This document shows positions 10,881 to 39,480 of a stretch of 64,000 nt of DNA, piece after piece. A program made the position numbers and the translations under genes. The notes under the pieces were generated by a model that saw nothing but the letters and a program-made list of their open reading frames with translations, was not told where the DNA came from and made no database searches. The stretch comes from Tetraselmis striata (lineage: Eukaryota > Chlorophyta > Chlorodendrophyceae > Chlorodendrales > Chlorodendraceae), in NCBI GenBank assembly GCA_006384855.1, contig VCJN01003503.1:1-64000 (forward strand), given 5' to 3'. Numbering within the stretch: position 1 is the first letter of the stretch; each line of letters begins with the position of its first letter.

Positions 10881-10974
10881 GAATGTCAGCTCGCTTACAT
10901 CGAAGGCTAAGACAAGAACCACAGGCTTGGCCTGGGTGTCTCGTAGCGCAAAAAGATGGTTGAGGGTGGGTGGG

Positions 10975-11152
10975 TGCGCGAGCCGGTTGAGGCGAGCGCA
11001 AAGCGGAGAGTGCCTGTGCCCGAGGGTGGATCCCCCAGGTCGTAGTGCTGGTGCGGGCCGGCAGGCCTTAGTCCGTGCGCCGACCTCGGGGGTCGTGCGC
11101 AGTACAACATAGCTAATGTACTGTAAACCTCTAGATGACTACATCTGACCAT
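10975..11152 (-). repeat. A2 split direct repeat of the PAT-type element
   Basis: About 178 bp, nearly identical to A1 at 15537-15718 (starts TGCGCGAGCCGGTTGAGG, ends CATCTGACCAT); A1 has a 4-nt TATG insertion near its end. Confidence 0.92.
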
Positions 11153-11179
11153 TTACCCAAGGAGGCACTGTTTGCCAGA
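11147..11179 (-). repeat. B1 split direct repeat of the PAT-type element
   Basis: Matches B2 (10847-10880) and lies between the recombinase stop and A2, as PAT architecture requires. Confidence 0.85.
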
Positions 11180-11208
11180 GACGAAAGCCACAGGCTAGCA
11201 CAGGAAGC

Positions 11209-12399: not shown

Positions 12400-12407
12400 A
12401 GCCCGGC

Positions 12408-14405: not shown

Positions 14406-14451
14406 GTAGAGGGAGGTAGGCGTACAAGAGTCGGCGCGGCGGGCCACACCG

Positions 14452-15507: not shown

Positions 15508-15536
15508 TCTGCTCGACTGCTAGAGTCGAGACTGCT

Positions 15537-15718
15537 TGCGCGAGCCGGTTGAGGCGAGCGCAAAGCAGAGAGTGCCTGTGCCCGAGGGTGGATCCCTCAG
15601 GTCGTAGTGCTGGTGCGGGCTGGCAGGCCTTAGTCCGTGCGCCGACCTCGGGGGTCGTGCGCAGTACAACATAGCTAATGTATGTACTGTAAACCTCTAG
15701 ATGACTACATCTGACCAT
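15537..15718 (-). repeat. A1 split direct repeat of the PAT-type element
   Basis: 5' end of the element on the minus strand; see A2 at 10975-11152. Confidence 0.92.
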
Positions 15719-18428: not shown

Positions 18429-18575
18429 CATCTTCCAGTTTTCGCTGCGTTCCACGCAGCGATGTAAAAAATGTCCCGTAACCTGTTGCGAGCAAGGTCA
18501 CCCATGTTGTTTAAGACCACACCCGGCTCACCACCCGCGTATGTGATATTCTCATCCGTACGCCCGTGCGTTACC

Positions 18576-19452
18576 ATGCCAAATGGAGAAAAACCCGTCG
18601 TTGAGCCGACGCTTGAGTCGCTACACGCAGACGTGAAGGCCCAGTCTACATTACTGCGAGAGCTTGCTACTGCGATGGCCCAACTGACGGCTCGTGAGCG
18701 CGTTGTTGATGGAGAAGGAGCACATGGTTCCTGTTCCGGGCAGCGCATCGCGGGACAGCCGACATGCAGCGGGGGAGCCGCAGAGCGCCCCGACTTGCTA
18801 GAGCTAGCCCAAAGCGGCCGTGTCGGAGCAAAATCCGTGAGTGACGAGGATGACTACATCGCGGTGCCAGAGCTATTGCAGAGAGCAGAGTCTGGTTACG
18901 AGGCCGTTCGACCGGTCAGCCGGGTGCCTGGGCTCTTCCCTTGAGCACCGACCTAACGAACGAGTACCTCAAGCAGGATGACCGGCGTCTGCCGGCCTAG
19001 GAGGAGTATCTATGGATGTCGTGTTTCGGCGCCCACATGGCCGCACTTTTCGTGGCTCTCGACGAGCTGCTGCCTTACGTCCCTGCTGCAAATCAGGACT
19101 TCGCCCCCTACCTCGCGAGAGCTCGGAACCACGTCAATCCATCGACAAGGCGTTTCGCTTTCGTTTGGCCTTCCTACGGAGGCTTAATGAGGTCAAGCGT
19201 GTGCACGGTGACCAAGGTGTTTTGGACGTGCTGCGAGCTCTGCCTGCCTGCCTGCTTGTGAGCATTTGGGCTCCGCGATTTTTGAGGACCTCATGAGGGA
19301 CTACGGGCGTCGCGTCTTCGAGGCGATTGTGGCCAGCAGCGCCAAAGCAACCGCTACTGCTCGGGTTGCGGCAGCAGCTGCATGCAGGGCGCGGACGTGG
19401 ACGAGGACGTGGCGGTGGACGCGGGCGTGGCCGCGAAGGTGAGCACGAGTGA
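18576..19452 (+). pseudogene. Gag-like ORF1 of copy A, frameshifted
   Basis: Aligns along its length with the intact ORF1 of copy D. A one-base loss in the C run at about 18,940 (FP|LSTDL) creates a TGA. Later there is a TAG where copies C and D have a Gln codon (near 19,000), and a further shift after the YLARARNH segment near 19,130. The Arg/Gly-rich C-terminus is present but degraded. The same helical core (YLWMSCFGAHMAALFVALDE) is recognisable, so the family assignment is secure though the gene is dead. Confidence 0.85.
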
Positions 19453-19666
19453 CGATGTGGGGCGCGTTTCGTCGGAGCTGCTGAAGCCTTGCGAGGCCAC
19501 CTTTCGGTGACCGCCGCAAAACGCACCCTTGCGGCTCAACGGCGGGATGAGCGCCAGGGGTCTGGACCTGACCCGCCCCCACCTTACAGACTTCATTTAC
19601 ACCTTCCTCGGTGCGGCGCTTCATACACAACAGCCGAGTGCGGCTCAACCATCCGCACACCTGCAC

Positions 19667-21123
19667 ATGGCGGCTCAACCAACCGCCCCCCGTACTATTC
19701 CATCACTGCGTCCGTCGGTTTTTACAGTGCGTGTCACAATTGGTTCGCAACGACCAAGCTTCGCGCGTGTACGTTTCCGCGCGTGACATGCGCTACGAGC
19801 GCGAAGGGCGTGCGGGGCGGCCCTCCTACCTGAACCTAGCCCCGCAAACTCGTACAGGTGCTACTGCAAACTCATCCAGCAACTACCGGCCAGCCGCCGG
19901 GAATCTAACCGCTGCTGCCGAGTACTTTGCAAACAGTAGTCGCACCTCTGGAACTCTGTCGGTAAAACGACGCACTTACGTAATTGACGAGCCCGAAGAT
20001 GTCGCTGCCTTGGCTGCTTCACTGCGATCTTTCGGACTGCAGGATGCTTTCGGCTCAGACGAGCTAGGACAACGGACACTCGACCTGCTCTCCAGCTCCC
20101 TCACCGCTCAGACACTCAAGAGCTACGCCGGCAGACTGTCTCAGTTCGCGCAGTTCTGCCACGACTCCGAGAACATCAGCCCGCTGTGGGCGACCACTGC
20201 TACTTTCGTCCGGTACGTCGCCTGGATTGGTGAGCGAGGGCACATTGGAGCTAAGTCACTGTAACCCTACCAGCCCGCGATCAACACGTTCTTCGAGCTG
20301 CACGACCTCGACCCAATCGCCAAGGACAGCCTACACCTCACTTCGGCAAGGCGTGGGCTGATGCTGCGGCAGCGCCGTCTGGAAGCCGCCCCTTTGCGAG
20401 TTCCTCTGCCTACTGATGTAGCTTACCGCTTCGTCACAAAGGCCGAGCTGATTGTGTCTGCTCCCCCCCTAGAGTACCAACACGACTTCGTTCCGAGCCC
20501 TCGTGGCCTCGGTTGTCATCTTCATGTTCTTTGCCAGGGGACTTACTGGCGTCTCCTGCCGAGTGCGGGATGTGCATGTCGACGATTACAACATTACCCT
20601 GCAGGTGTACCGCGAGAAAGGCCGCGCTGGCCGACGGGGACCCGACGACATGCGCGTGCTTCTCCTTCCGGTATCAGAGCACCCCCGAGTTGCACGTCTC
20701 CTACACCACTTCATCGACACGATACAGTCTGCCCCCGTGGTTACTGTTGCCTTGGCTGAAACAAACTTCTGGGCGGTCACCCCGAGCGAGCACTCAAAAC
20801 CTTGGACTGCCGCTACAATATCGGACTGGCTGTCTACAGCCGTCCGTCTTGTCGGTGCTGCCCCTCCCGCCGACACTTCCTGGACCTCACACAGCCTTCA
20901 CAAGGGAGCAGCGTCTGCGGCCAACGCCATCGGAGTATCATTGTCCCACATTCGCTACCAAGGCGGCTGGGCCACTAACTCTGACGTCGTTCTGGACTAC
21001 ATCGACCCCAACGTTCTTCCTTCACCTGGCGCATGGTTCTTCTTTGGCCACATCGCCCCCCTCCGCCACTTCCAAGTCCAACAGGACTCCGCAGCGGTGG
21101 CCTTCCCAGTGCCTCCTTCATGA
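19667..21123 (+). pseudogene. Tyrosine recombinase of copy A, inactivated
   Basis: Homologous to the intact copy D enzyme over its whole length. A TAA at 20,262 stands where C and D have CAA (Gln), and an indel near 20,485 changes frame. In the catalytic part Arg I (ARGLTGVSCR) and the nucleophile (DYIDP) are kept, but HxxR reads HSLH, so the second catalytic Arg has become His. Even with the frame intact this copy should not cleave DNA. Confidence 0.88.
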
Positions 21124-21433
21124 CATGGCGCTACCCCTTCTCCGTCAATCCACCGCTCTCTCCGTTCGCTCATGACTGGCAAAACCAGACTCAACTTGAA
21201 ATGATCTAAACTAGGTTATGGGGTTTCCTCCCTTGACCTAACCGCTTTTCAGCTACAAGTGCTGCTCAGTGGTCCTTGAACTAGGCACCTGTCGTTGCGC
21301 CCTTTTTCGGTGCAGCATGAGTAGCCATAAAAGCAGCCATAACGCTTTCGCTAAACCATCCTGCCAATTTCGGCTCTTGTCTGTATAAAACAGCCTGCGC
21401 GACCATTTTGGCAAAATCAGACTCAACTTGAAA

Positions 21434-22804
21434 TTGGATTTCCAATTTCCAAGTTTCAGCCGGCCTGGGCTGGTTGCCAAGAACGAAGCCTTGTGTATTG
21501 GCGATACGAGGATGCGGGTGCCAGCTTGGACTCAAGCGCGAGCTCCGTCCGTGGCCTCTGTTTCGACGTTTCGCGTTCGTGGAGCAGACGGAGACCGTGC
21601 ACGTAAGAATCACACGTACCGATATTTGCACTTTTAAATTTTTTAAAAATGAATAGAAAAGCGCCCCCGGCGTCAGTGCGCGTATCGTCCGCTGCTGCGC
21701 GATGCTGACTGGCTCGCCTTCTTACGGGGTGAGGATAGCAGGCCGCGAGCAACACGCAAGTGGTCCATTCCCAGCGCTGCACTTGTATACCTTACGGCTC
21801 AAGGTGGCAGTTTGCTTTGAAACCGCTCTAAAGGGACAGCGCCTGCGCACTTCACACCGCGCCACCGAAGACGGGCGTCGGGTCTCCAACATGTATGTTG
21901 CGGCGCTTTCCGGAGGGCGATGCCTCCCTCGGTACGGCACGCCCAAAAAGACAAGCTCCCCACCCCGCGCTTATCGAGATCGCCGCCCCTGACGTGTGCC
22001 GCAGCACCTGTCATGCAGCACTACCCACCCTCGCCAGTGACTCCCCCCTTCGTACCGGCCTTGCCCATGTCACACACTCTGCCTGCCCAGCTGGTCGCGC
22101 GAACCCTACGGGTCCCTTACACCGCCAGTTTGTCGGCGCGACGTACAACACTGTAAATCTGTATATCCACCGTGCTTCCCTCCTTTTCGCCCTGCCCCCG
22201 GCAAGGCGGGTTGGGTAATAGAAGATAATTGGGGACCGGGGCGAGATCATTAGCAAAGGCCTAAGGCGTGTCCCGGCGGCCTCTGTGCCTTGTCCTTGCC
22301 TCGACAGCTCCGCTTACATCCCGTCGTCGCTGTCGGAAGTCGTACGCCCTCCTCAGATCACCCCTTCTCAACCCCCCCCCCCCCCCCCCCCCTGCGCCTT
22401 ATCCACCGTTTCTCCAGACACCCGTCCTGGCGTAGCGCCCGGCATCCCCACATGTACTGCTTTGAATGGATGTACACCATGCTCCGCTGGCTGCGAAGCG
22501 GTGGTAGGCTGCCGCTGATGGCGGTCTGAACTGTGCTTGCTGCGCGCTATGTTGTCACCACAGGAGAGGGCATGAAGCCCTGTCTTCCATCTCGCAAAGA
22601 CCTCCAAATCATGCACTTCGGCATGGATTCCCTGCCACGGTACGGTGGCATTGAAATTCGTCTGTGAGCGGACCTGTGGAGGCGAGGGCCTGGCCGGGGG
22701 GGGGGGGGGGGGGGGGGGGCTCAACAGCAAGCTAACGAGCTACGTATACCTACCCCCCCCCCCCCCCCCCCCGCCCCCCCTCCCTCCTCCCCCTTGCTGT
22801 GCAG
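21434..22804. other. Spacer with long homopolymers; no gene recognised
   Basis: Contains a C tract at 22,372-22,392, a G tract at 22,696-22,719 and a C tract at 22,753-22,772. The missing 5' exons of the coiled-coil gene could lie here or beyond copy A, but I cannot identify one. Confidence 0.45.
22696..22719. repeat. Poly-G tract, 24 nt
   Basis: Uninterrupted G run, followed 33 nt later by a 20-nt C run (22,753-22,772); the pair could fold on itself. Confidence 0.95.
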
Positions 22805-24162
22805 GCCGCTGCAGCGCGCGGCTCCCTGAAAGTATTCGCGGCGGCCAAGGGCGCCCGGACGCCGGATAGCAGCACAAGCGGAGATACGATCACGGTAGCC
22901 GTCCCCACACTGCGAGGACAGTGTCGCGGCCCTCTGCTGCGCTACGGGTGCCACCGCAACTATACAAACATTTGTGGTACATACATGTATACCACCCGTT
23001 GTTATTTTGCCCTACTATGGCCTCTGGCAGGCAGGATATGTGCTCATTCGCAGATTGCACAGCTGGCTGGGTTTTTGGCGCATCCATGTGATTGCGCAGC
23101 AGCGCTGCTTCACCGCTCAACCGCGCTGCGTATGCCGGCCCGCAGGAGTCCGTCGAGATGTTTGTTGCGCATGACGAGGACATGGGCATTTTTGGGCGCG
23201 CGAAGCAGATGGCGCGCAGGATTGTGCCGAGGCCCCGCAGCGGCAACACGTCGCCTAACACCGTTCCCGACACCGAGGACATCGCCCCGCCAAATGCGAG
23301 CGCCCCGGCAGCTGAAACCACCACGCCAGCCCCCGCACCAGCGCCAACACCGGTGCCTCTGCTGCCGGCGACCACTGCATCTGATAGCACAGGCCTCGAG
23401 AAGGTGGACGGGCAGGCAACTGCCATGGCTACCATGGCGCAGAAGAGGGCGCGCGCTCTTCAGGTACGCATGCTGACACAGGCACCGAGGGGGACTGCGT
23501 GGACATTTGTTCCGTCCCGTGTGTCCATGGCCCCACGTGCACGCACCATACCATGAGTAAACATTTTAACCATGATATACTGTCCGTGCATTGTTCACGG
23601 AGTATTATGACAGATTTTAAGCAGATAGACTGTCATTTCCCTTTTCAAAGGAAGCCCCGGGGGGGAAGGGAAGGGGGGTAAATCCAAACCTACGCTAGGC
23701 CACCCTAGGTCAACTCGCAATCCCCCCCCCCCCCCCCCCCGGCTCTCTGCTGAATATTTGGGTGTTTAAAAGTTAAGGCTTGAGGCGAGTTCTTCATGAC
23801 TGTAGGGCTACAGGGGTCTAGTCTTGAGGGTTTGAGGTCTGTATGGGATTAAACCTGTCAGGGGTGTGCGCACGGGCTGCATAGACGCATGCGCCCTGGC
23901 GCCATGTGGCGGCGGTGCCGAGCCGGCCCTGACGCGCGCCGTTGCTGTGCGGCAGGCGGAGCTGGGCATCGTGTCCTCGGAGCTGCGCGAGAAGAGCATG
24001 GAGGTGAAACAGTCGGAGAAAGTGATCCGGCAGAAGGACAGCGAGATCGCGGGGCTGAAGGGCATGCTGCAGCAAAAGGAGATGCAGGTGGTGGCGGCGC
24101 GATCCGAGCTCGTGGATGCGCGCGTGCAGCTGCAGGTGAGCCCCACCACCACCACCACACAA

Positions 24163-24209
<47 letters not shown>

Positions 24210-25752
24210 CTCCCCCACATGCTCCACTGTTCCATCTAAACTGCTGTATTAATGTAGTGCATTCGATTTACACATAGGGCATGTTTAGATCAGGGTTTTA
24301 GGGGAAAACCCAAACTTCCGTCTCATTGTACCATCTGATGCCAATCAACCAACCAACCTACTGGGTCGAACCGTGCGGAAACTCTGCCATTCCAGTGCGT
24401 AACTGGCGCCCTGAGCTACGCTGAAAAGCAATCTCACTTAACACTACTTCAGCGCCATCAGTAAACACCGATTTGGAAGAGGTGTTGATAGGAGCTGAAA
24501 GCAACTCCGGGAATGGCGGGGTATGCTTGAAGGATGTGGCTTCAATTGGCCAGGTTTTGATCAGGATATGTTCAGACAACTCATCGCTTCCCTATCGCTC
24601 CGCATCCCTCCCACTCCATCGTGTGAACGGTTGCATCCGGCAAAATCTTCACTGCCTGCATCCTCGGGGATGGAGGGTTCTTCGAAATCTGCTGTAGGGG
24701 GGTGTGTGCTCACTGTGCGCCTGCGGCCGGCCCATCGTTGTGCAGGAGAAGGACGGTGCGCTGCAGTCGGCGCTGGAGCAGCTGACATCGGCTGCAAGGG
24801 AGCGGTCGCAGCTGAGAAAGGATCTCATTGGAGCTCAGGTACGGTGTCCGCCCTCCGCTCGCATCTCCTCCCACAACGTGCGGCCTCCCTTTGCCATGCG
24901 GCAGCTGCATGAGCGCACAGCCTTCCACATCCCACCCATGTCATTGCTCTCATATACCCAAGCAGTGACCACCCTTGATTCCCGGGGGAGGGGGGGGGGT
25001 ATTTTGAGAGAGGGGGGGGTGGGGTTGGGGGCGGTCTTATCCTTTTTAGCCCCGCTCTCACCGCAGGGCTCTTAACAAATTCTTATGTGTGCAACCCCAA
25101 AGCAAGCGGTGGGCATAATATGCTGTCTTGCCTGAAATGAATGTGATGCTTTGGATAGATCGTAACCCCCCCCCCCCCCCCCTCGCCTCCCGTTCTCGGA
25201 ACTTGCAGACGGAGCTCATGGAGACCCGGGGTGAGATCGAGCGGTGGACCATCCACCTGAACCAGCTCAAGGCTGTCATGGATTCCGTGGACGTTGACGA
25301 GATGGAGGGCTCCGCCATGGAGGAAATGGCTGTCGAAGGCATCGCGGACCTGGACGCGGACCAGATGATTGACGACCAGTACTTTGACATGCTGATGGTG
25401 CGTGTGGGGCTGTTCCTTGGCTGCCCAGCAATATGCGCTTTGCTGCGGCACCGGCTGCATCGTTGCCCAACATCTGCTCATACCCAACCCACACTGGGTT
25501 TGCAAAGCAGGGAAAATACACAATCAGCTTGGTCTCTTGCCTCAGTTGCCACAAACTGTACGGAAATCGCAATTTGAGTCGGTGTTCGTGGGACCCGCAA
25601 CCAAACTCACTTGTCTTCCCTGCTGTTGTCTTGCTATGGTGCGCGTACAGGACCTGAACGATCTGGCTTCTACCCTAGCCAAGGAGGCCGCTCAGGACGA
25701 GGACACCTTCAGGCGGCTCGATCAGCACATGGGCGGCCAGCAGGATGTGTAG
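22805..25752 (+). CDS. Coiled-coil protein, 3' six exons
   Basis: Six exons bounded by CAG acceptors and GT donors, all in phase 0: 22,805-22,894; 23,146-23,463; 23,956-24,135; 24,746-24,838; 25,209-25,397; 25,651-25,752 (stop TAG). They encode about 323 residues. The first two are Ala/Pro/Thr-rich with a short basic motif (GIFGRAKQMARRIVPRPR). The next two are a continuous coiled coil (EKVIRQKDSEIAGLKGMLQQ, then ALEQLTSAARERSQLRKDL). The last two are acidic (DVDEMEGSAMEEMAVEG) and end FRRLDQHMGGQQDV. The gene begins at an acceptor, so earlier exons are missing; copy A of the YR family lies upstream and may have been inserted between. Kinesin, centriolar or vesicle-tethering proteins often end this way, but I cannot choose among them. 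Confidence 0.75.
23722..23740. repeat. Poly-C tract, 19 nt, intronic
   Basis: Lies in the third visible intron-side sequence of the coiled-coil gene. Confidence 0.95.
24165..24207. repeat. (CA)n microsatellite, intronic
   Basis: About 20 CA units shortly after the donor at 24,136. Confidence 0.95.
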
Positions 25753-26835
25753 GCGCACCGCTCGTTCTGATGAGCCGTGCAGTTAGCCCAGCCCCTCCCT
25801 TTATACTAGATAGTCACCGTGCGCGCCTAGAACAGACCTCGAGCATTGGTCTTTGAGACCAGCTTGGGCTGTGCTGACATGCCATGCCGTCCGTGGATGT
25901 TACACCTGCTCAACCTGCAGTCTCATTACACCAGCAGCGCTGTACAATACTCCCTCGTGCTTGGCCGTTGCAAACTAGAATCACCTTTGTCTTCCGCAAC
26001 TACAATGTATCAACAAGGTGTACTGAGATTTTTAAATCTTCGCTCTTTGCCCGCCATATGCTCCATGAGACGTGCTGCGTGGAAATGCCCATGCCGCTTG
26101 ACACGCACTCCCATCTTGCCTTAGCCTTCATCTCAGGGGCTCGTGGTGTAAAGACTCGCAAGTTGTTCCGCTACAGAACCGCTATCCACAGTACGGATAC
26201 GAGTGCAATGCACAGGACATTCTGCAAAGTAATCACAGCAAACGGCGGAATTCAGGCGGTGCTGGCAATGCTTGCGTACATCCATGACAGCGGGCTCAGA
26301 TTGAATAATGTCCCCGAATGCGTCGGGCGTGCTGCGCTGCCCCAAACTGCCGACGACGCAAGAAGAGTCCTCGGTGGAGGTGCTGGTATGCCCCTGGTGT
26401 CTGAGCGCCCCCCCCCCCCCCCCCTCCCAACATCCCTTCACCAAGTACGTGCTGGAGCACATCACTGTTGGTGCTGTCGTTGCCAAGCAATATCAAGAAT
26501 CCGGGCAGACCTAGCACTCGGATCCTCCGAGGCGGAGTTGCCAGACTCACCTGAGCTGCAAGACCCACCCACCCAGGCCACTCTCCGTGGCCGCGTCGGG
26601 AGTCATCGTCAACTTGCCTGTGCCACCTGTACCACCACATTATAGGAACTCGGAAATCGCGCTACTTGCGACGATGGCAGTTTTTCTGTTTTTGTGCTGT
26701 GGAGAGCGAGCGCTACCGCCAGCACCCTTCGTCTGCTACATTACCGTATGCCACGACCCGCCAGTACCAGTAACGTTACTCGTTGACCGGGCGCTGACAA
26801 TTATCACGATGAGCGACAAAATCCTGATAAGGCCA
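25753..26835. other. 3' flank of the coiled-coil gene; no gene recognised
   Basis: One plus-strand frame (25,884-26,645) is open for 253 codons, but its composition is not protein-like and it crosses a poly-C run at about 26,409-26,423. I do not call it. Confidence 0.45.
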
Positions 26836-27225
26836 TTTCAGAGTTGAGTCTGGTTTTGCCAAAAACGTCGCGCAGGCTATACGATAAAGAGCCGAAATCG
26901 GCAGGAAGGTAATAAAGTGAAAAGCGTGGAGGGAAAACGCAGGGAGGGCGCTGCGTGTAAACGCAGCGAAAACTGGAAGATGGCAGGCTCAGCTGTTATG
27001 GATGCTTTTATGTCTACGCGTGCAGCACCCCAAAAAGGCGCAACGACAGGTGCCTAGTTCCCGTACCATTGAGCAGCACTTGTAGCTGAAAAGCCGTTCG
27101 GTCACGCACGTGCGTGGAGGAAACCCCATAACCTAGTTTAGATCATTTCAAGTTGAGTCTGGTTTTGCCAGTTATGAGCGAACGGAGAGAGCGGTGGATT
27201 GACGGAGAAAGGGTAGCGCTAGGTC

Positions 27226-28575
27226 ATGAAGGAGTCACTGGGAAGGCCACCGCCGCGAAGTCATGTTATTGCACTTGGAAGTTGCGGAGGGGGGCGACGT
27301 GCGTGGCCAAAGAAGAACCATGCGCCAGGTGAAGAAGAACGTTGGGGTCGATGTAGTCCAGAAAGACGTCGGAGTTAGTGGCCCAGCCGCCTTGGTGGCG
27401 AATGTGGGACAATGAAACTCCGATGGCGTTGGCGGCAGACGCTGCTCCTTTGCGAAGTTTAGCTGTGTGAGGTCCAGGAAGTGTCGGCGGGAGGGACAGC
27501 ACCTACCAACAAGACGGACGGCTGTAGACAGCCAGTCCGACGTTGTAGCGGCGGTCCAAGGTTTTGACTGCTCGCTTGGGGTGACTGCCCAGAAGCAAGT
27601 TTGTTTCAGCCAAGGCAACAATAACCATGGGTACAGAATGTACGTTGTCGATGAAGTGGTGCAGGAGACGTGCAACTCGGTTGTGACACCGGAAGGAGAA
27701 GCACGCGCAGGTCGTCGGGTCCCCGTCGGCCAGCGCGGCCTTTCTCGCGGTACACCTGCAGGGTAATGTTATAATCGTCGACATGCACATCCCGCACTCG
27801 GCAGGAGACGCCAGTAAGTCCCCTGGCAAAGAACATGAAGTTGACAACCGAGGCCAAGAGGGCCGGGAAGTCGTGCTGGTACTCTGAGGTGAGAGCAGGC
27901 ACAATCAACTCGGCCCTCTCGACGAAGCTGTAAGCTACATCAGCAGGCAGAGGAACTCGCAAAGGGGCGGCTTCCAGACGGCGCTGCCGCAGCATCAGCC
28001 CACGCCTAGTTGTAGCAAGGTGTAGGCTGTCCTTGGCAATTGGGTCGAGGTTGTGCAGCTCGAAGAACGTGTTGATTGCAGACAGGCAGGGTTGCAGTGA
28101 CTTAGCTCCAATGTGCCCTCGCTCACCAATCCAGGCAATGTACCGGACGACAGTAACAGTGGTCGCCTCCAGCGGGCTGACGGTCTCGGAGTCGTGGCAG
28201 AACTCTGCGAAATGAGACAGTATATATGCCGGCGTAGCTCTTGAGTGTCTGAGCGGTGAGGGAGCAAGTCGAGCGTCCGCTGCCCTAGCTCGTCTGAGCC
28301 GCCGAAAGCATCATGCAGTCGAGATCGCAGTGAAGCGGCCCAGGGGGCGACATCTTCGGGCTCGTCAATTACGTAAGTGCGTCGTTTTACCGACAGAGTT
28401 CCAAGGGGGCGACTACTGTTTGCGAAGTACTCGGCAGCAACGGTTAGATTCCCGGCGGTTGGCCGGTAGTTGCTGGACGGGTTTGCAGTAGCACCAGTAC
28501 GGGGTTGCGGGGCTAGGTTCGTCGGACGCAGTGATGAAATGGTACGGGAGGCGGTTGGTTGAACCGCCGTGTGCA
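27226..28575 (-). pseudogene. Tyrosine recombinase of copy B, decayed
   Basis: Matches copy D in several frames. The start codon is lost (ATG to ACG), about 40 codons are missing near the N-terminus (after ISSLRP the sequence jumps to NLAPQ), and frameshifts occur in the core-binding domain (near 28,220) and in the HxxR region (about 27,450, where HSLR is destroyed). REKGRAGRRGP and the DYIDP nucleophile segment are still readable. Confidence 0.85.
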
Positions 28576-28783
28576 GGTGTGCGGATGGTTGAGCCGCACT
28601 CGGCTGTAGCTGTAAGAAGCGCCACACCGAGGAAGGTCTAAATGAAGTCTGTAAGGTGGAGGGGTAAGGTCCTGACACATGGCGCTCATCCCGTCGTTGA
28701 GCTGCAAGGGGGCGTTTTGCGGCGGTCACCAAAAGGTGGCCTCGCAAAGCTCCTGCGGCTCCGACGAAAGGCGCCCCACACCG

Positions 28784-30118
28784 TCACTCGTGCTCACCTT
28801 CGCGGCCACGCCCGCGTCCACCACCACGTCCTCGCCCACGCCCGCGCCCTGCAGCTGCTGCCGCTACCCGAGCAGTACCGGTTGCTTTGGCGCGGCTGGC
28901 CACTGTCGCATCGAAGACGCGACGCTCGTGAGGTCCCCAAAAATCGCGGAACCCAGATGCTCAGAAGCATGCTGAAAGTGCTGGGCTCGCAGCACGTCTA
29001 GAACACCTTGGTCACCGTGTACACGCTTGACTTCATTGAATCTCCGTTGGAAGGCGAAACGAAAGCGACACGCCTTGTCGATGGTTTCGGCGTGGTTCCG
29101 AGCTCTCGCGAGGTAGGGGGTGAAGTCCTGACTAGCAGCGGGGACGTAGATAGGGCAGCAGCTCGTCGAGAGCCACGAAAAATGCGGCCGCGGCGCTTCG
29201 AGTTGCGACGCCCGATGGCACACTAGTACTTGGCGCCGGCGGCTCGCAGCGTGTGGGGGTGGGTAGGAGCTACTTACTGGCGCTGCTGCGATGGTTAACT
29301 GCCCGCCCGCACTTGCTGTAAAACATGAGGTTCGAGCCTACGATGCCGTTGGGCGTTGGCCGTTGCTCTGGTCGTCACGGAGCTGATTGTGAGGCGTTAA
29401 AGTACAGCATGGCGGAAGTCCCAAAGATTACGGGTAGGCGCGCGAGGTGCGATGTGGGCCCAATGTACTATGGGGACGGCACGGCATGGTATTGGTAGCA
29501 ATATTACGGAATGCATGCCGGCGGGCACTTCATTGCGACTACCGGGCCTAGCAGAATAGTGGCGATTACACGTTCTATACAGCAATTACAAACCCATTCC
29601 GTGGGAAAATCGCGATCACGGGCCATTACAGTGTAATTACGAGACATGCTGGGAGGCTAGTGAATGGGCCCCGAAACACGACATCCATAGATACTTCTCC
29701 TGGGCCGGCAGACGCCGGTCATCTTGCTTGAGGTACTCGTTCGTTAGGTCGGTGCTCAAGGGAAGGAGTCCACGCACTCGGGTGACCGGTCGAACGGCCT
29801 CGTAACCAGACTCTGCTCGCTGCAGTAGCTCTGGCACCGCGAGGTAGGCATCCTCGTCACTCACGGATTTTGCTCCGACACGCGGCCGCTCTGGGCAAGC
29901 TCTAGCAAGTCGGGGCGCTCTGCGGCTCCCCCGCTGCTTGCCGGCTGTCCCGCGATGCGCTGCCCGGAGCCGGAACCATGTGCTCCTTCTCCATCAACAA
30001 CGCGCTCATCAGGAGCCGTCAATTGGGCCAACGTTGTAGCAAGCTCGCGCATTAATGTAGACTGGGCACGCAACTCAAGCGTCGGCTCAACGACGGGTTC
30101 TTCTCATCGATTTGGCAT
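28784..30118 (-). pseudogene. Gag-like ORF1 of copy B, decayed
   Basis: A TGA appears at the fifth codon after the ATG at 30,118, by a short insertion relative to copies A, C and D. Later blocks (VPELLQRAESGYEAVRPV, RARNHAETIDKA, EHLGSAIFGDL) are recognisable in shifting frames, with extra sequence near 29,240-29,690 that is absent from the other copies and may be a secondary insertion. Ends in a degraded Arg/Gly-type tail. Confidence 0.8.
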
Positions 30119-30420
30119 GGTAACGCACGGACGTACGGATGAGAATATCACACACGGGTTGTGAGCCGGGTGTGGTCTTGAACAACCTGGGGTGACCTTG
30201 CTCGCAACTGGTTACGAGACAGTTTTTACATCGCCGCGTGTAACGCAGCGAAAACTGGAAGAAGGCAGGGTCAACTGTTATGGCTGCTTTTATGTCTAAT
30301 CGTGCTGCACCCAAAAAAGGCGCAACGACAGGTGCCTAGTTCCCGTACCACTGAGCAACACTTGTAGCTGAAAAGCGGTTAGGTCAAGGGAGGAAACCCC
30401 ATAAACAAGTATATTAGATC

Positions 30421-30892
30421 AGTAAAAATTGTTAGTGTGTTTTAGGTAACCCCCCCCTCTAATCTGACCCGCCCCTCCATAAGTTTTGTAGCTGGCTGAT
30501 GTAATGTGTAAAGTACTATCGACATCAGTGTCCGGGGGGAAAGTGCTGTAATTGTCCATATATTGTGTACGGGGCACGGCTGCCATACATGTAGTTGTGC
30601 ATATCAAGGCATGAGGGCAGCATTCAGAGCACAACAAACCACGCGATTAAAGTAATGTTCTATGGCTGCCACTGCCCCACTGCCACTGCCTTCTGGCGTG
30701 TGCCCACCATACATATGGTCATATATTTGATGTGAGTGTTGGCTGCTACTGCATGCTGCTTGTCTAGATGGCGCTGCGCCTCTTTCCCGCTCTAGTTGTT
30801 GCTGCTTGCTCGTGCCATTAGTTGCATATCCTTTGCAGTGATGTATCTCTTTGTTATTGACCACGCATGTCTGGCACATAGGCAACAAATCC
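30421..30892. other. 3' flank of the unrecognised minus-strand gene
   Basis: AT-richer DNA; a minus frame continues through part of it (CQTCVVNNKEIHHCKGY near 30,830), which may be an alternative 3' exon of the neighbouring gene. Confidence 0.35.
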
Positions 30893-32611: not shown

Positions 32612-33013
32612 GGTATCAGCTATCCAAGTCGAAGGCTAGCGACGTGAGGTAGGCGTGGTTGTTATAGACTGATAGGTATTTGCGCTCGGGCCGACAGCAG
32701 CATGCCGGCCTAGCCGCGCCGGAGGCGGCGCCGGCGGCGGCAGTGCTGGTGAGGGTTGTGCGGTGCGTACCCGTACGGTACGGCGGTTAGGTGGAGCCGG
32801 TAAGGAAAGCGGAAAGTACTAGCATCAAAACTTTGGGCCAGACAGGGCCAGATACAAAATCTCCCCCCCCCCCCCCCCTTCTTGTTTGAGCGAGATGTGG
32901 CACCTAAAACACACTAACAATTCTTACATACTGGCCTAATGTACATATATCTATATAATATACATATGTACGTATGCATATATGTACATGTGTATCTACA
33001 TAACATACATATT
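32612..33013. other. AT-rich tract with poly-C run, target region of copy C
   Basis: A C run lies at about 32,862-32,878. A TA/CA/TG-rich stretch (32,935-33,013, many ACATATAT and GTACATA units) leads directly into the element end GATCTAAAC. Confidence 0.6.
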
Positions 33014-33312
33014 GATCTAAACTAGTTTATGGCGTTTCCTTCCTTGACCTAACCGCTTTTCAACTACAAGTGCTGCTCAGTGGTACGGGAACTAGGCATC
33101 AGTTGTTGCGCCCTTTTTGGGTGCAGCACGAGTAGACATAAAAGCAGCCAGAACAGCTGAGCCTGCCATCTTCCAGTTTTCGCTGCGTTCCACGCAGCGA
33201 TGTAAAAACTGTCTCGTAACCAGTTGCGAGCACGGTCACCCCATGTTGTTCAAGACCACACCCGGCTCACCACCCGAGTGTGATATTCTCGTCCGTACGT
33301 CCGTGCGTTACC

Positions 33313-34167
33313 ATGCCAGATGGAGAAGAACCCGTCGCGGAGCCGACGCTGGAGTCGTTGCAAGCAGATGTGCGAGCGCTAGCTACATCTGTAGCTCAAT
33401 TGACGGCTCGTGAGCGCGTTGTTGATGGAGAAGGGGCACATGGCTCCGGCTTCGGGCAGCGCGTCGCGGGACAGCCGACAGGCAGCGGGGGAGCCGCAGA
33501 GCGCCCCGACTTGCTAGAGCTAGCCCAGAGCGGCCGTGTCGGAGCAAAATCCGCGAGTGCCGAGGATGACTACCTCGCGGTGCCAGAGCTACTGCACAGA
33601 GCATAGTCTGGTTACGAGGCCGTTCGACTGGTCAGCCGAGCGCCTGGACTCTTCCCCTTGAGCACCGACCTAACGAACGAGTACCTCAAGCAGGATGACC
33701 GGCGTCTGCCGGCCCAAGAGGAGTATCTATGGATGTCGTGTTTCGGCGCCCACATGGCCGCGCTTTTCGTGGCTCTCGACGAGCTGCTGCCCTACGTCCC
33801 TGCCACCAACCAGGACTTCACCCCCTACCTCGCGAGAGCTCGGAACCACGCCGAGGCCATCGACAAGGCGTTTCGGTTTCGTTTGGCCTTCCAACGGAGA
33901 TTCAATGAGGTCAAGCGTGTGCACGGTGACCAAGGTGTTCTGGACGTGCTGCGAGCCCAGCATTTTCAGCATGCTTCGGAGCATCGGGGTTCCGCGATTT
34001 TTGGGGACCTCATGAGGGACTACGAGCGCCGAGTCTTCGAGGCGACCGTTGCCAGCAGCGCAAAGGCGACCGCTACTGCTCGAGTGGCGGCTGCAGCTGC
34101 AGGTCGTGGGCGTGGGCGAGGACGAGGCGGGGGACGTGGGCGTGGACGCAAAGATGAGCACGAGTGA
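33313..34167 (+). pseudogene. Gag-like ORF1 of copy C, one nonsense codon
   Basis: Nearly identical to copy D ORF1 except for a short deletion near residue 25 and a TAG at 33,604 replacing a sense codon (GAG in copy A) before SGYEAVR. Otherwise open to the Arg/Gly-rich C-terminus (GRGRGRGRGGGRGRG). Suggests recent inactivation. Confidence 0.88.
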
Positions 34168-34392
34168 CGGTGTGGGGCGCCTTTCGTCGGAGCTGCTGTA
34201 GCTTTGCGAGGCCACCTTTCGGTGACCGCCGCAAAACGCACCCTTGCAGCTCAACGGCGGGATGAGCGCCCTGTGTCAGGACCTGACCCCCCCCCCCCCC
34301 CCCCCACCTTACAGACTTCCTTTAGACCTTCCTCGGTGTGGTGCTTCTTACAGCTACAGCCGCGTGTGGCTCAACCATCCACACACTTGCAC

Positions 34393-35570
34393 ATGGCGGC
34401 TCAACCAACCGCTTTCTTTACCCCATCTCTGCGTCCGTCGGTTGTTACACTACGTGTTACAACTGGTTCGCAACGACCAAGTTTCGCGCGGGTACGTTAC
34501 GCGCGTGACAGGCGCTACGAGCGCGAAGGGCGCGCGGGGCGGCCATCTTACCTGAACCTAGCCCCGCAAACCCGTACCGATGCTACTGCAAACCCGTCCA
34601 GCAGCTACCGGCCAGCCGCCGGGAACCTAACCGCTGCTGCCATGTACTTTGCGAACGGTAGTCGTACCGGTGGAACTCTGTCAGTACAACGACGCACTTA
34701 CGTGATTGACGAGCCCGAAGCTGTCGCTCCCTGGGCTGCTTCATTGCGATCCCGGCTGCAGGACGCGTTCGGCTCAGACGAGCTGGGCCAACGGACGCTC
34801 GACCTACTCTCCAGCTGCCTCAGCGCTAAGACACTCAAAAGCTACGCCGGCCGGCTATCTCAATTCGCGGAGTTCTGCCACGATTCCGAGAACATCAGCC
34901 CGCTGGAGGCAACTACTGCCACTGTCGTCCGGTACGTCGCCTGGATTGGTGAGCGAGGGCACATTGGAGCTAAGTCACTGCAACCCTACCTGCCCGCGAT
35001 CAACACGTTCTTCGAGCTGCACGACCTCGACCCAATCGCCAAGGACAGCCTACACCTCACTTCGGCAAGGCGTGGGCTGATGCTGCGCCAGCGCCGACTG
35101 GACGCTGCCCCCTTACGTGTCCCTCTGCCTGCGGATGTAGGTTATCGCTTCGTCACAAAACCCAGCTGATTGTGTCTGCTCCCTACCCAGAGTACCACCA
35201 CGACTTCCGAGCCCTCCTGGCCTCGGTTGTCAACTTCATCTTCTTTGCCAGGGGCCTTACTGGCGTGTTCTGTCGAGTGCGAGACGTGCACGTCGACGCC
35301 TACAACATCACCCTGCAAGTGTACCGAGAGAAGGGTCGCGCTGGTCGGCGGGGACCCGACGACCTACGCGTACTTCTCCTGCCTGTGTCAGAGCACCCCC
35401 GAGTGGCGCGTCTCCCGCACCACTTCCTCGACCACGTCCAGTCAGTTCCCCTTGTTACTGTTGGCTTGGCTGTGTCAAACTTCTGGGCTGTCAGATCGGA
35501 CGAGCAGTCAAAACTTGGACTGCGGCTACAATGTCAGACTGGCTGTCCACAGCCGTCCGTCTAGTCAACG

Positions 35571-35606
<36 letters not shown>

Positions 35607-35859
35607 CTGGCACCTCTTGGACCTCGCACAGTCTTCGCAAGGGCGCAGCCTCTGCAGCGAACGCCATCGGGGTGCCATTGTCCCACAATCGCTACCAGGG
35701 CGGTTGGGCCACTAACTCTGACGTCGTTCTCGACTACATCGACCCCAAGGTTCTTCTTCACCTGGCGCATGGTTCTTCTTTGGACACATCGCCCCCCTAC
35801 GCCACTTCCAAGTCCAACAGGACTCCGCAGCGGTGGCCTTCCCAGTGCCTCCTTCATGA
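34393..35859 (+). pseudogene. Tyrosine recombinase of copy C, frameshifted
   Basis: Full-length homologue of copy D. The frame is lost at about 35,160 (after the RFVTK segment) and again near 35,510 (after EQSK). A 32-nt C run at 35,574-35,605 lengthens a short Pro codon run but keeps the local frame, so residues on both sides (LVNAAP, AGTSWTS) stay in one frame. Arg I, the REKG hairpin, HSLRKG and DYIDP are all kept. Confidence 0.9.
35574..35605. repeat. Poly-C tract, 32 nt, inside a recombinase gene
   Basis: Longest homopolymer seen here. Copy D has only a short C-rich stretch at the same place, so the tract grew after the copies separated. Confidence 0.95.
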
Positions 35860-36219
35860 CTTGGCGCTACCTCTTCTCCGTCAATCCACCGCTCTCTCCG
35901 TTCGCTCATGACTGGCAAAACCAGACTCAACTTTGAAATGATCTAAACTAGTTTATGGGGTTTCCTCCCTTGACCTAACCGCTTTTCAGCTACAAGTGCT
36001 GCTCAGTGGTACGGGAAGTAGGCATCTGTTGTTGCGCCCTTTTTGGGTGCAGCACGAGTAGACATAAAAGCAGCCAGAACAGCTGAGCCTGCCATCTTCC
36101 AGTTTTCGCTGCGTTCCACGCAGCGCCCCCCCCTGTCTCCGTTTTCCCTCCACGCTTTCGCTAAACCATCCTGCCAATTTCGGCTCTTGACCGTGTAAAA
36201 CAGCCTGCGCGACGTTTTT

Positions 36220-36277
36220 GGCAAAACCAGACTCAACTTTGAAACATACATATTTCAAAGTTGAGTCTGGTTTTGCC
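36220..36277. repeat. Tail-to-tail junction, perfect inverted repeat around CATACATA
   Basis: Copy C ends AGACTCAACTTTGAAA and copy D begins TTTCAAAGTTGAGTCT on either side of about 8 nt. This is the centre of a ~6.4 kb inverted pair. Confidence 0.95.
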
Positions 36278-36634
36278 AAAAAGGTCGCGCAGGCTGTTTT
36301 ACACGGTCGAGCCGAAATTGGCAGGAAGGTTTAGCGAAAAGCGTGGAGGGAAAACGGAGTCAGGGCGGGCGCTGCGTGGAACGCAGCGAAAACTGGAAGA
36401 TGGCAGGCTCAGCTGTTCAGGCTGCTTTTATGTCTACTCGTGCTGCACCCAACAAGGGCGCAACAACAGTTACTAGTTCCCGTACCACTGCGCAGCACTT
36501 GTAGCTGAAAAGCGGTTAGGTCAAGGATGGAAACCCCATAAACTAGTTTAGATCATTTCAAAGTTGAGTCTGGTTTTGCCAGTCTTGAGCGAACGTAGAG
36601 AGCGGCGGATTGACGGAGAAGGGGTAGCGCCAAG

Positions 36635-38083
36635 TCATGAAGGAGGCACTGGGAAGGCCACCGATGCGGAGTCATGTTGGACTTGGAAGTGGCGGAGGGG
36701 GGCGATGTGTCCAATGAAGAACCACGCGCCAGGAGAAGGAAGAACGTTGGGGTCGATGTAGTCCAGAACGACATCGGAGTTAGTGGCCCAACCGCCTTGG
36801 TAGCGGATGTGGGACAGTGGCGCTCCGATGGCGTTTGCTGCAGAGGCTGCGCCCTTGCGTAGACTGTGTGAAGTCCAGGAAGTGCCAGCAGGAGGGGCAG
36901 CGTTGACTAGGTTGACCGCTGTAGACAACCAGTCTGACATCGTAGCCGCAGTCCAAGGTTTTGACTGCTCAGCCACATTGACAGCCCAGAAGTTGGAGGC
37001 AGCCAAGCCAACAGTAACCAGGGGGACAGACTGGACGTTGTCGATGAAGTAGCGCAAGAGTCGTGCCACTCGAGGGTGCTCGGACACTGGAAGGAGAAGT
37101 ACGCGCAGGTCGTCGGGTCCCCGACGGCCAGCGCGACCCTTCTCGCGGTAGATCTGCAAGGTGATGTTGTAGGTGTCGACATGCACATCTTGCGCTCGAC
37201 AGGAGACGCCAGTAAGGCCCCTGGCAAAGAACAGGAAGTTGACAACCGAGGCCAAGAGGGCTCGGTAGTCGAGGTGGGACTCTGGGTAAGGAGCAGACAC
37301 AATTAGCTCGGCCTTTGAGACGAAGCGGTAAGCTACATCCGCAGGCAGAGGGACACGCAAAGGGGCAGCGTCCAGTCGGCGCTGCCGCAACATTAACCCA
37401 CGCCTTGACGAAGTGAGGTGTAGGCTGTCCTTGGCGATCGGGACGAGGTTGTGCAGCTCGAAGAAGGTGTTGATGGCAGACAGGTAGGGCTGCAGCGACT
37501 TAGCTGCGATGTGCCCTCGCTCCCCGATCCAGGCAACGTACCGAACAACATTAGCAGTAGTCGCCTCCAGCGGGCTGATGTTCTCGGAGTCGTGGCAGAA
37601 CTCAGCGAACTGAGACAGTCTGCCGGCGTAGCTCTTGAGGGTCTGCGCGCTGAGGGAGCTGGAGAGCAGGTCCAGCGTCCGCTGGCCTAGCTCGTCTGAG
37701 CCGAACGCGTCCTGCAGCCGAGATCGCAGTGACGCAGCCCATGGAGCGATAGCTGCGGGCTCGTCGATTACGTAAGTGCGTCGTTTTACTGACAGAGTTT
37801 CACCGGCACGGCTACTGTTCGCAAAGTACTCGGCAGCAGCGGTTAGGTTCCCGGCGGTTGGCCGGTAGTTGCTGGACGGGTTTGCAGTAGCTCCAGTACG
37901 GGTTTGCGGGGCTAGGTTCAGGTAAGAGGGCCGCCCCGCGCGCCCTTCGCGCTCGTAGCGCCTGTCCCGTGCGTAACGTACACGCGCGAAACTTGGTCGT
38001 TGCGAACCGGTTGTAACACGTAGTGTAACAACCGACGAACGCAGAGATGGGGTTGTAAGAAAGGCGGATGGTTGAGCCGCCAT
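36635..38083 (-). CDS. Tyrosine recombinase, intact (copy D)
   Basis: 482 residues. The N-terminal ~110 are Arg/Thr-rich and element-specific. The SAM-like core-binding domain follows (TLKSYAGRLSQFAEFCHD, VVRYVAWIGERGH, NTFFELHNL), then the catalytic domain. Arg I is in FFARGLTGVSCR, the hairpin in QIYREKGRAGRRGP, HxxR in TSHSLRKGAAS, the Trp at the third basic position in YQGGWATNS and the nucleophile Tyr in VLDYIDP. All six catalytic positions are therefore present. It is closer in sequence to the DIRS enzyme at 11.2-12.4 kb than to what I know of Cryptons, because it shares the core-binding helices. It should recombine the short B or A repeat ends. The start is the first ATG shared with copies A and C. 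Confidence 0.93.
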   Translation of the reverse strand: MAAQPSAFLTTPSLRSSVVTLRVTTGSQRPSFARVRYARDRRYEREGRAGRPSYLNLAPQTRTGATANPSSNYRPTAGNLTAAAEYFANSSRAGETLSVKRRTYVIDEPAAIAPWAASLRSRLQDAFGSDELGQRTLDLLSSSLSAQTLKSYAGRLSQFAEFCHDSENISPLEATTANVVRYVAWIGERGHIAAKSLQPYLSAINTFFELHNLVPIAKDSLHLTSSRRGLMLRQRRLDAAPLRVPLPADVAYRFVSKAELIVSAPYPESHLDYRALLASVVNFLFFARGLTGVSCRAQDVHVDTYNITLQIYREKGRAGRRGPDDLRVLLLPVSEHPRVARLLRYFIDNVQSVPLVTVGLAASNFWAVNVAEQSKPWTAATMSDWLSTAVNLVNAAPPAGTSWTSHSLRKGAASAANAIGAPLSHIRYQGGWATNSDVVLDYIDPNVLPSPGAWFFIGHIAPLRHFQVQHDSASVAFPVPPS

Positions 38084-38295
38084 GTGCAGGTGTGCGGATG
38101 GTTGAGCCGCACTCGGTTTTAGCTGTAAGAAGCGCCGCAGCGAGGAAGGTCTAAATGAAGTCTGTAAGGTGGGGGGTCAGGTCCTGACACAGGGCGCTCA
38201 TCCCGCCGTTGAGCTGCAAGGGTGCGTCTTGCGGCGGTCACCGAAAGGTGGCCTCGCAAGGCTCCTGCAGCTCCGACGAGCGGCGCCCCACGCCG

Positions 38296-39171
38296 TCACT
38301 CGTGCTCACCTTCGCGGCCGCGTCCACGTCCGCCGCCACGTCCTCGCCCACGCCCGCGACCTGCAGCTGCAGCCGCTACTCGAGAAGTAGCGGTCGCCTT
38401 TGCGCTGCTGGCAACGGTCGCCTCGAAGACACGACGCTCGTAGTCCCTCATGAGGTCCCCAAAAATCGCAGAACCCAGATGCTCCGAAGCAGGCTGAAAA
38501 TGCTGAGCTCGCAGCACATCCAGAACACCTTGGTCACCGTGCACACGCTTTATCTCATTCAGCCTCCGCAGGAAGGCTAGACGAAAACGAAACGCCTTGT
38601 CGATGGCCTCGGCGTGATTCCGAGCTCTCGCGAGGTAGGGGGTGAAGTCCTGGTTAGTGGCGGGGACGTAAGGTAGCAGCTCGTCGAGCGCCACGAAAAG
38701 GGCGGCCATGTGGGCCCCGAAACACGACATCCACAAGTACTCCTCCTGGGCCGGCAGACGCCGGTCATCCTGCTTGAGGTACTCGTTCGTTAGGTCGGTG
38801 CTCAAAGGGAAAAGTCCAGGCACTCGGCTGACCGGTCGAACGGCCTCGTAACCAGAATCTGCTCTCTGCAGTAGCTCTGGCACCGCGAGGTAATCATCCT
38901 CGGCACTCACGGATTTTGCTCCGACACGGCCGCTCTGGGCTAGCTCTAGCAAGTCGGGGCGCTCTGCGGCTCCCCCGCTGCCTGTCGGCTGTCCCGCGAA
39001 GCGCTGCCCGGAGCCGGAGCCATGTGCCCCTTCTCCATCAACAACACGATCACGAGCCGTCAATTGTGCCACAGCTGTAGCCAACTCTCGCAGTAATGAA
39101 GACTGGGCCCTCATATCTGCGTTCAGCGACTCCAACGTCGGCTCCGCGACGGGTTCTTCTCCATCTGGCAT
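38296..39171 (-). CDS. Gag-like ORF1, intact (copy D)
   Basis: 291 residues from ATG 39,171 (the same ATG is present in copies A and C; an upstream in-frame ATG-equivalent adds 11). The N-terminus is acidic and helical (TLESLNADMRAQSSLLREL, probable short coiled coil). A Gly/Ser linker (GSGSGQRFAGQPTGSGG) follows, then a folded helical core (EEYLWMSCFGAHMAALFVAL, then FRFRLAFLRRLNEIKRVHGD), and the last ~25 residues are Arg/Gly repeats. The RG tail is a plausible RNA-binding module in place of a zinc knuckle. By position and plan it corresponds to DIRS ORF1. Keeping a gag-like protein without an RT suggests packaging of RNA into particles made by another element. Confidence 0.85.
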   Translation of the reverse strand: MPDGEEPVAEPTLESLNADMRAQSSLLRELATAVAQLTARDRVVDGEGAHGSGSGQRFAGQPTGSGGAAERPDLLELAQSGRVGAKSVSAEDDYLAVPELLQRADSGYEAVRPVSRVPGLFPLSTDLTNEYLKQDDRRLPAQEEYLWMSCFGAHMAALFVALDELLPYVPATNQDFTPYLARARNHAEAIDKAFRFRLAFLRRLNEIKRVHGDQGVLDVLRAQHFQPASEHLGSAIFGDLMRDYERRVFEATVASSAKATATSRVAAAAAGRGRGRGRGGGRGRGREGEHE

Positions 39172-39480
39172 GGTAACGCACGGACGTACGGACGAGAATA
39201 TCACACTCGGGTGGCGAGCCGGGTGTGGTCTTGAACAACCTGGGGTGACCTTGCTCGCAACGGGTTACGAGACAGTTTTTACATCGCTGCGTGGAACGCA
39301 GCGAAAACTGGAAGATGGCAGGCTCAGCTGTTCTGGCTGCTTTTATGTCTACTCGTGTTGCACCCAACAAGGGCGCAACAACAGTTACTAGTTCCCGTAC
39401 CACTGCGCAGCACTTGTAGCTGAAAAGCGGTTAGGTCAAGGATGGAAACCCCATAAACTAGTTTAGATCATATCATACAA

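What the first reader, a model, noticed from the sequence alone, without database searches (positions are those of the whole stretch)
18429..39469. Family of split-repeat YR elements with a gag-like ORF and tyrosine recombinase but no reverse transcriptase
Four copies (A 18.4-21.4 kb, B 26.8-30.4 kb, C 33.0-36.2 kb, D 36.25-39.47 kb) share ORF1 + YR and the A1-ORFs-B1-A2-B2 repeats typical of PAT-like DIRS retroelements. The two ORFs are only ~40-210 bp apart, so RT, RNase H and methyltransferase domains are absent from all copies. This is not a random deletion in one copy, and copy D has both ORFs open with a full catalytic set. Either this is a parasite that supplies its own capsid-like protein and integrase but borrows an RT, or it moves as a DNA circle. 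I know of no described group with exactly this content (non-autonomous DIRS usually lose more; Cryptons lack gag and split repeats).
Basis: partly seen in the sequence, partly recalled or inferred. Interest (0 to 1): 0.88.

Follow-up and report, generated by a model that had tools for sequence, protein, structure and literature searches.

The report
Jumping genes without their own copier
A green alga's genome holds hundreds of copies of a small mobile element that carries a packaging-type gene and a cut-and-join enzyme but no reverse transcriptase, and it most likely borrows that enzyme from a larger relative, one copy of which lies in the same stretch of DNA.

Summary
Four copies with A1-ORF1-YR-B1A2-B2 layout lie at 18429-21434, 26835-30421, 33014-36245 and 36252-39469, in what is by its best protein hits Tetraselmis striata. 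The family is large: 725 exact B1A2 junctions. RT is absent family-wide as far as sampled: 65 of 69 paired markers span 2.5-2.8 kb (89 examined), and RT queries match 0 of 60 loci while YR matches 59. Both ORFs evolve under purifying selection.

The finding does not mention an RT-bearing relative in the same window (10852-15716, minus): gag, RT-RNase H-weak methyltransferase, YR, same split repeats. Its YR is 36% identical to ours, its B repeat is also 27 nt (15 of 27 shared), and it too inserts after TAT. 42 of 53 scored RT hits have no stop.

Best reading: an RT-less PAT-like element that supplies gag-like protein and YR and takes RT in trans. A1 and A2 co-vary within elements; a TATA-like box and UGUAA signal would leave A1 and B2 out of the RNA, so only internal B1A2 could restore them. 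DNA-only movement is less likely but not excluded.

The parts
36252..39469 (-). Copy D, whole element (3218 bp)
39285..39469 (-). Copy D, A1 repeat; contains TATA-like CATAAAA at 39341-39347
38296..39204 (-). Copy D, ORF1 (gag-like, RGG-rich C terminus); likely ATG (MPDGEEP) 11 codons inside the listed frame
36635..38083 (-). Copy D, tyrosine recombinase (482 aa)
36555..36581 (-). Copy D, B1 repeat (27 nt), joined directly to A2
36370..36554 (-). Copy D, A2 repeat
36299..36303 (-). Copy D, TGTAA (putative poly(A) signal), 25 nt before B2
36252..36278 (-). Copy D, B2 repeat
33014..36245 (+). Copy C (broken frames); tail to tail with copy D, 6-7 bp between the two B2 repeats
26835..30421 (-). 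Copy B (old, broken; A1/A2 differ at 31 positions)
18429..21434 (+). Copy A (A1 truncated to its last 33 bp, starting at A position 159; broken frames)
10852..15716 (-). RT-bearing relative with the same split-repeat layout (4865 bp)
14452..15519 (-). Relative: gag ORF (355 aa, stop to stop)
12408..14957 (-). Relative: RT - RNase H - weak Dam-type methyltransferase ORF (849 aa)
11209..12492 (-). Relative: YR domain (C-terminal part of the frame 11209-14451), 36% identical to copy D YR
11151..11177 (-). Relative: B1 repeat (27 nt), joined to A2 (11150-10975)
10852..10878 (-). Relative: B2 repeat, identical to B1; TGTAA 21 nt before it

Best explanation
These are RT-less PAT-like elements of the DIRS order. 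Each makes its own YR and a gag-like ORF1 protein and depends on a reverse transcriptase supplied in trans, most likely by the RT-bearing sister family (copy at 10852-15716). Proposed cycle: (1) RNA starts near the end of A1, about 24-30 nt after the TATA-like box, and ends just before B2; (2) ORF1 protein packages the RNA; (3) a relative's RT copies it, and the missing ends A1 and B2 are rebuilt from the internal B1A2 joint; (4) the cDNA closes into a circle with a B.A junction; (5) the element's own YR recombines that junction with a target ending in TAT; (6) the same YR, or homologous recombination, inserts circles into existing B.A sites, giving tandem arrays with a 2.92-kb step. Shown: gene content, repeats, lack of RT in the sampled family, selection on both ORFs, A1/A2 co-variation, shared target preference, tandem spacing. 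Inferred: steps 1-6, which RT is used, and ORF1 as packaging protein.
For: No RT: 5'-end marker to B1A2 is 2510-2802 bp in 65 of 69 pairs (20 of 89 unpaired); ORF1 end to B1A2 is 1708-1907 bp in 49 of 60, and three longer ones were fetched and show YR directly after ORF1; two RTs match 0 of 60 loci while the YR query matches 59. Long-standing: copies A and C and loci L005-L007 (dS 0.20-0.36 from D) have the same content; dN/dS 0.09-0.15 for ORF1 (3 comparisons) and 0.18-0.25 for YR (6). RNA phase: A1 and A2 of one element share minor variants (own pairs closer than in all 10,000 re-pairings, 27 elements) at A positions 33-108 and 143, upstream of the inferred start near 159; TGTAA lies 25 nt before B2 in 27 of the 27 tails that the script recognised in 29 loci, and in chlorophytes, the Chlorodendrales alga Scherffelia among them, UGUAA peaks about 17 nt before the cleavage site (PMC1868727, passages); copy A and L047, with different flanks, have A1 cut at positions 159 and 157. 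RT source: YR 36% identical, E 7e-74; B repeats 15/27 identical, shuffle p 0.0006; TAT before 178 of 244 non-junction A starts of the relative, and in ours T at -1 in 42 of 42, A at -2 in 25, T at -3 in 30; 42 of 53 scored RT hits have no stop and 52 of 53 are other copies at 96-98%. Trans movement in this genome: the relative has a short class, A1 to B1A2 1554-1566 bp in 12 of 39 pairs (46 joints examined); the 351 bp read from one such copy is open gag.
Against: No transcript, cDNA or circle was seen. A1/A2 co-variation could come from gene conversion, and at two columns (A93, A118) two elements carry the same minor base in A1 only. The A1 cuts near 157-159 are 2 of 5 truncations seen, and 39 of 40 further 5' ends were complete. 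The relative's A has none of the TATA patterns tried and does not align with ours above shuffles. ORF1-gag similarity is weak: whole proteins z 4.3 (1 of 300 shuffles as high), a core picked after seeing the alignment z 5.2 (0 of 1000), but hhalign 1.7% and nothing by BLAST. ORF1 shared against singleton variants are not significant (p 0.14). No intron-lacking copy was found; deletions in L008, L030 and L032 do not look intron-like.
Confidence: 0.7

Rival explanations
1. A DNA transposon that kept retroelement repeats: YR excises a DNA circle and re-inserts it, with copy number rising by replication or by circle re-integration; no RNA or RT is needed (a Crypton-like life with split repeats).
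For: No RT in the sampled family; tandem arrays at 2916-2931-bp spacing, with intact B.A joints in the three C2200 units read, are what YR or homologous recombination of circles would give; YR under strong selection.
Against: A1 and A2 are homogenised within elements, and the duplicated segments coincide with the parts predicted to be missing from the RNA; ORF1 is under selection between subfamilies and looks weakly related to a gag; an RT-bearing relative with the same layout is present.
Confidence: 0.18
2. A burst of copies from one recently deleted master that lost RT by chance and is carried along passively.
For: Many copies are 97-100% identical (best-scoring hits only).
Against: RT-less content is shared by subfamilies at dS 0.2-0.36; YR shared variants show pN/pS 0.087 against 0.417 for singletons, p 1e-7; the nearest RT-bearing relative seen has only 36% YR identity.
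Confidence: 0.06
3. The RT partner is not the sister family but the other PAT-like family in the genome (L068/L069) or another retroelement.
For: L068/L069 has gag, RT, YR and identical A1/A2 and B1/B2; 20 of 122 rows of the Dam search have the same 696-aa frame.
Against: Its YR has no significant BLAST similarity to ours, its ends do not match, and its B repeat is 68 nt.
Confidence: 0.06

Closest known systems
RT-bearing sister family in the same genome (window 10852-15716)
   Same: A1-ORFs-B1A2-B2 layout; 27-nt B repeat with TGGCAAA...AAAT; TGTAA 21-25 nt before B2; YR 36% identical; TAT target
   Different: Has RT, RNase H and a weak Dam-type domain; 4865 bp; A repeat not alignable with ours; 213 exact junctions, its short class included, against 725 for ours
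PAT-like DIRS elements (Pat1, TOC3, Kangaroo)
   Same: Split direct repeats A1-B1-A2-B2, ORF in gag position, YR (definition from PMC4157794 passages)
   Different: Those are described with RT and MT domains; this family carries neither
SIRE, the short derivative of VIPER in trypanosomes
   Same: Non-autonomous derivative of a YR retroelement with split repeats (PMC6681497 passages)
   Different: SIRE is made of VIPER end pieces; this family keeps two selected genes
TR-GAG LTR retrotransposons of plants
   Same: Keep gag and move non-autonomously (PMC8704663, search listing only; details recalled)
   Different: LTR elements, no YR (recalled)
Cryptons
   Same: YR without RT (PMC3212892 passages)
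   Different: No long or split direct repeats; the DUF3504 link of animal Cryptons was not seen here

Membership tests
PAT-like DIRS retroelement | Split direct repeats A1-ORFs-B1A2-B2 | tested here: met
PAT-like DIRS retroelement | Encodes a tyrosine recombinase with catalytic residues | tested here: met
   first Arg placed by eye
PAT-like DIRS retroelement | Encodes RT and RNase H | tested here: not met
PAT-like DIRS retroelement | Encodes DIRS-type methyltransferase | tested here: not met
   no Pfam match in either ORF; no room between the ORFs
PAT-like DIRS retroelement | gag ORF | tested here: inconclusive
   model of ORF1 too poor to use (mean pLDDT 38.5)
PAT-like DIRS retroelement | Integration without target site duplication | tested here: met
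   no abutting duplication of 4 bp or more in 17 of 17 flank pairs; shared words between flanks not above re-paired flanks (p 0.07). Exception: copy C has CATACATATT on both sides, its right flank running into copy D. No empty site was compared
PAT-like DIRS retroelement | Moves through RNA | tested here: inconclusive
   indirect signs only
Crypton | YR element without long direct repeats | tested here: not met
   191-bp A repeats and 27-nt B repeats
Crypton | YR of the DUF3504 kind (animal Cryptons) | tested here: not met
   no such Pfam match at E 1; feature from PMC3212892 passages
TR-GAG element | Long terminal repeats (recalled) | tested here: not met
   split repeats instead

The most novel reading that the evidence does not exclude
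A retroelement lineage that has dropped reverse transcription altogether: a selected gag-like protein and YR now propagate DNA circles, and split repeats persist as recombination sites. That would be a retroelement turned DNA transposon.
Probability: 0.15. Interest if true: 0.85.

Novelty: new variant of a known kind. Interest (0 to 1): 0.56.

Why it matters
In YR retroelements the priming, the packaging and the use of the internal B1A2 joint are models (recalled). Here the polymerase has been separated by evolution from the gag-like gene and the integrase, in a family with more exact junctions than its RT-bearing sister (725 against 213), in an alga. That gives a natural test of which parts must act in cis and which can be borrowed, and the match between repeat boundaries and transcript signals makes the end-restoration model directly testable by RACE and circle sequencing.

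Tried and rejected
Idea that RT sits in some copies: marker spacing and the fetched outliers say no; one copy (L016) lacks YR downstream of ORF1, but the 1.5 kb there has no RT, gag or YR match (positive control). The one listed protein record joining RVT_1 to our ORFs (P0080) looks like a Gypsy-type fragment upstream of a partial ORF1 joined by a gene model (by eye). Idea that intron-less copies prove RNA: deletions in L008, L030 and L032 do not look intron-like (by eye). Idea of viral relatives: 6 pattern hits in viral contigs, none confirmed. PF00589 hits L001-L004 look bacterial (by eye). The ORF1 structure model was unusable, so no fold search was made. Idea that many copies start at the inferred transcription start: of 40 further 5' ends one was truncated, at another place.
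Full report
Where it is. The best protein matches to copy D are gene models of Tetraselmis striata (Tetstr1, TSEL), and the window is contig C2817 of a 224-Mb assembly. The four copies are real and lie at the stated places. In copy D the repeats are A (191 bp in the alignment, 185 within the element), B (27 nt), B1 joined to A2, and a 91-bp spacer between A2 and B2. C and D stand tail to tail with 6-7 bp between their B2 repeats.

How many, and is RT ever there. The exact B1A2 27-mer occurs 725 times (control 0), a 5'-end 30-mer 611 times and an ORF1-end 18-mer 398 times. Only about the first 100 places of each list are shown, by contig number. Of the 60 ORF1-end places on contigs covered by both lists, 49 have B1A2 1708-1907 bp downstream, 3 have it 6.7-10.4 kb away and 8 are unpaired. 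The three were fetched: YR follows ORF1 directly and its 3' part is not found. Of the eight, C23 and C328 show YR next to ORF1, three belong to a C348 array with 2.92-2.93-kb steps, and three were not resolved. Of 89 5'-end places, 69 pair with a B1A2 within 15 kb; 65 of these are 2510-2802 bp away, the others 3.9, 9.5, 9.8 and 11.4 kb, and 20 are unpaired. tblastn of the RTs of both RT-bearing families against loci L008-L067 matched 0 of 60 at 1e-3, while our YR matched 59 of 60 and the RT queries found the relative in the window. In L008-L037, 29 of 30 have YR about 215 nt after ORF1; the exception, L016, runs into unrelated DNA.

Selection. Loci were the best-scoring protein hits, so damaged copies are under-represented. 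Between subfamilies, ORF1 dN/dS is 0.09-0.15 (3 comparisons) and YR 0.18-0.25 (6 comparisons), with gapped and stop codons dropped and copy B not used. Among 46 distinct YR copies, variants shared by 3 or more copies are 71 silent and 17 changing, singletons 74 and 85 (p 1e-7); for 48 ORF1 copies 47 and 17 against 75 and 45 (p 0.14, not significant); variants in exactly two copies were left out. YR at least is kept working in the replicating lineage, and ORF1 is conserved between subfamilies.

Signs of an RNA phase. For 27 elements with both A repeats readable (24 loci and window B, C, D; loci with only one readable A repeat dropped, L038 dropped as the same copy as D), A1 and A2 differ by 1.96 on average within an element and 3.69 between elements; none of 10,000 re-pairings was as low, also without the window copies. 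15 of 27 pairs are identical; for 22 of 27 the own partner is among the nearest. Variants fixed in both repeats lie at A 33-108 and 143; at A93 and A118 two elements share a minor base in A1 only, which counts against. A holds a TATA-like CATAAAA at position 129, and TGTAA lies 25 nt before B2 in 27 of 27 recognised tails; it is present in C, D, L005, L006 and L031, not in old copies A and B. In chlorophytes UGUAA peaks near -17 from the cleavage site, and the Chlorodendrales alga Scherffelia shares it (PMC1868727, passages). So the RNA should lack most of A1 and all of B2, the segments that B1A2 duplicates. Copy A and L047, with different flanks, have A1 cut at positions 159 and 157; for L047 the two extra bases may be chance. 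Other A1 cuts seen are near 45, 86 and 118. This is suggestive, not proof.

Integration. In 42 left flanks the last base is always T, with T at -3 in 30 and A at -2 in 25; right flanks start T (20) or C (12) of 32. No abutting duplication of 4 bp or more occurs in 17 of 17 flank pairs; one pair (L039) shares an 8-nt word and copy C has CATACATATT on both sides. Arrays on C2200, C2249, C1388 and C348 repeat every 2916-2931 bp, close to the A1-to-A2 distance of 2915 in D; three C2200 units differ by 0-1 of 870 ORF1 bases.

The RT-bearing relative. At 10852-15716 on the minus strand are gag, an RT-RNase H-weak Dam ORF and YR, with A1, B1A2 and B2 as in our family. Dam is below its cut-off (E 0.008). 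Its YR matches ours at 36% over 445 aa, E 7e-74. ORF1 and its gag align with z 4.3 over the whole (1 of 300 shuffles as high) and z 5.2 over a core chosen afterwards (0 of 1000), but hhalign gives 1.7% and BLAST nothing. Its B repeat is 27 nt and shares 15 of 27 positions with ours (p 0.0006). Of 457 exact A starts, 213 are B1A2 joints and 178 of the other 244 follow TAT. Of 30,893 loose RT candidates 53 were scored, 52 of them other copies at 96-98% identity; 42 of the 53 have no stop. The relative also has a short class: of 46 joints examined 39 have an upstream A start, 19 at 4.5-4.7 kb and 12 at 1554-1566 bp; 351 bp of one short copy is open gag, the rest unread. A second, more distant PAT-like family (L068/L069) is also present.

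Literature. In the passages read, PAT-like, Ngaro and DIRS elements are described as RT-bearing (PMC4157794, PMC8547959, PMC3783388). Six phrases of the form 'non-autonomous DIRS/PAT/Ngaro/YR' gave 15 papers, all of another subject by title; the listings show no title or abstract opening that describes such a family. Subscription papers and Repbase were not searchable, so absence from print is not claimed.

Verdict. A real, large, selected, RT-less family of the PAT type, with an RT-bearing sister as the likely helper: a new variant of a known kind.

Noticed in passing
window 10852-15716: RT-bearing YR element with split repeats, related to the finding; not mentioned in the finding as given.
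   Followed up: yes
window 16239-17354 (-): A further YR-like stretch, about 30% identical to both YRs; its element was not delimited.
   Followed up: no
L113 (C603:167300-167650) and 12 of 39 paired joints of the relative: A short class of the RT-bearing family with 1.55 kb between A1 and B1A2; the 351 bp read is open gag, so it may be a gag-only passenger.
   Followed up: partly
contigs C2200, C2249, C1388, C348: Tandem arrays of the RT-less element with 2916-2931-bp steps.
   Followed up: partly
window 36245-36252: Copies C and D are tail to tail with 6-7 bp between B2 repeats, making a near-perfect palindrome; copy C has CATACATATT at both flanks.
   Followed up: partly
L001-L004 (contigs C1804, C2009, C396): Contigs that look bacterial by their ORFs, probably contaminants of the algal assembly.
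   Followed up: no
P0003 and P0231, JGI metagenome contig of 5779 bp: An environmental contig (same length for both, so probably one) carries ORF1 (169 aa, 99% identical) and YR (89% identical) of this family.
   Followed up: no
P0261 and P0091: Gene models joining our ORFs with gag of the RT-bearing relative, suggesting nested insertion.
   Followed up: no
window 46001-48000: Stretch of 74% GC with long open frames on both strands; not examined.
   Followed up: no
L081, L091, L092: Three of 40 copies whose A1 begins GTTTTAAAC instead of TGATCTAAAC: a possible variant end.
   Followed up: no
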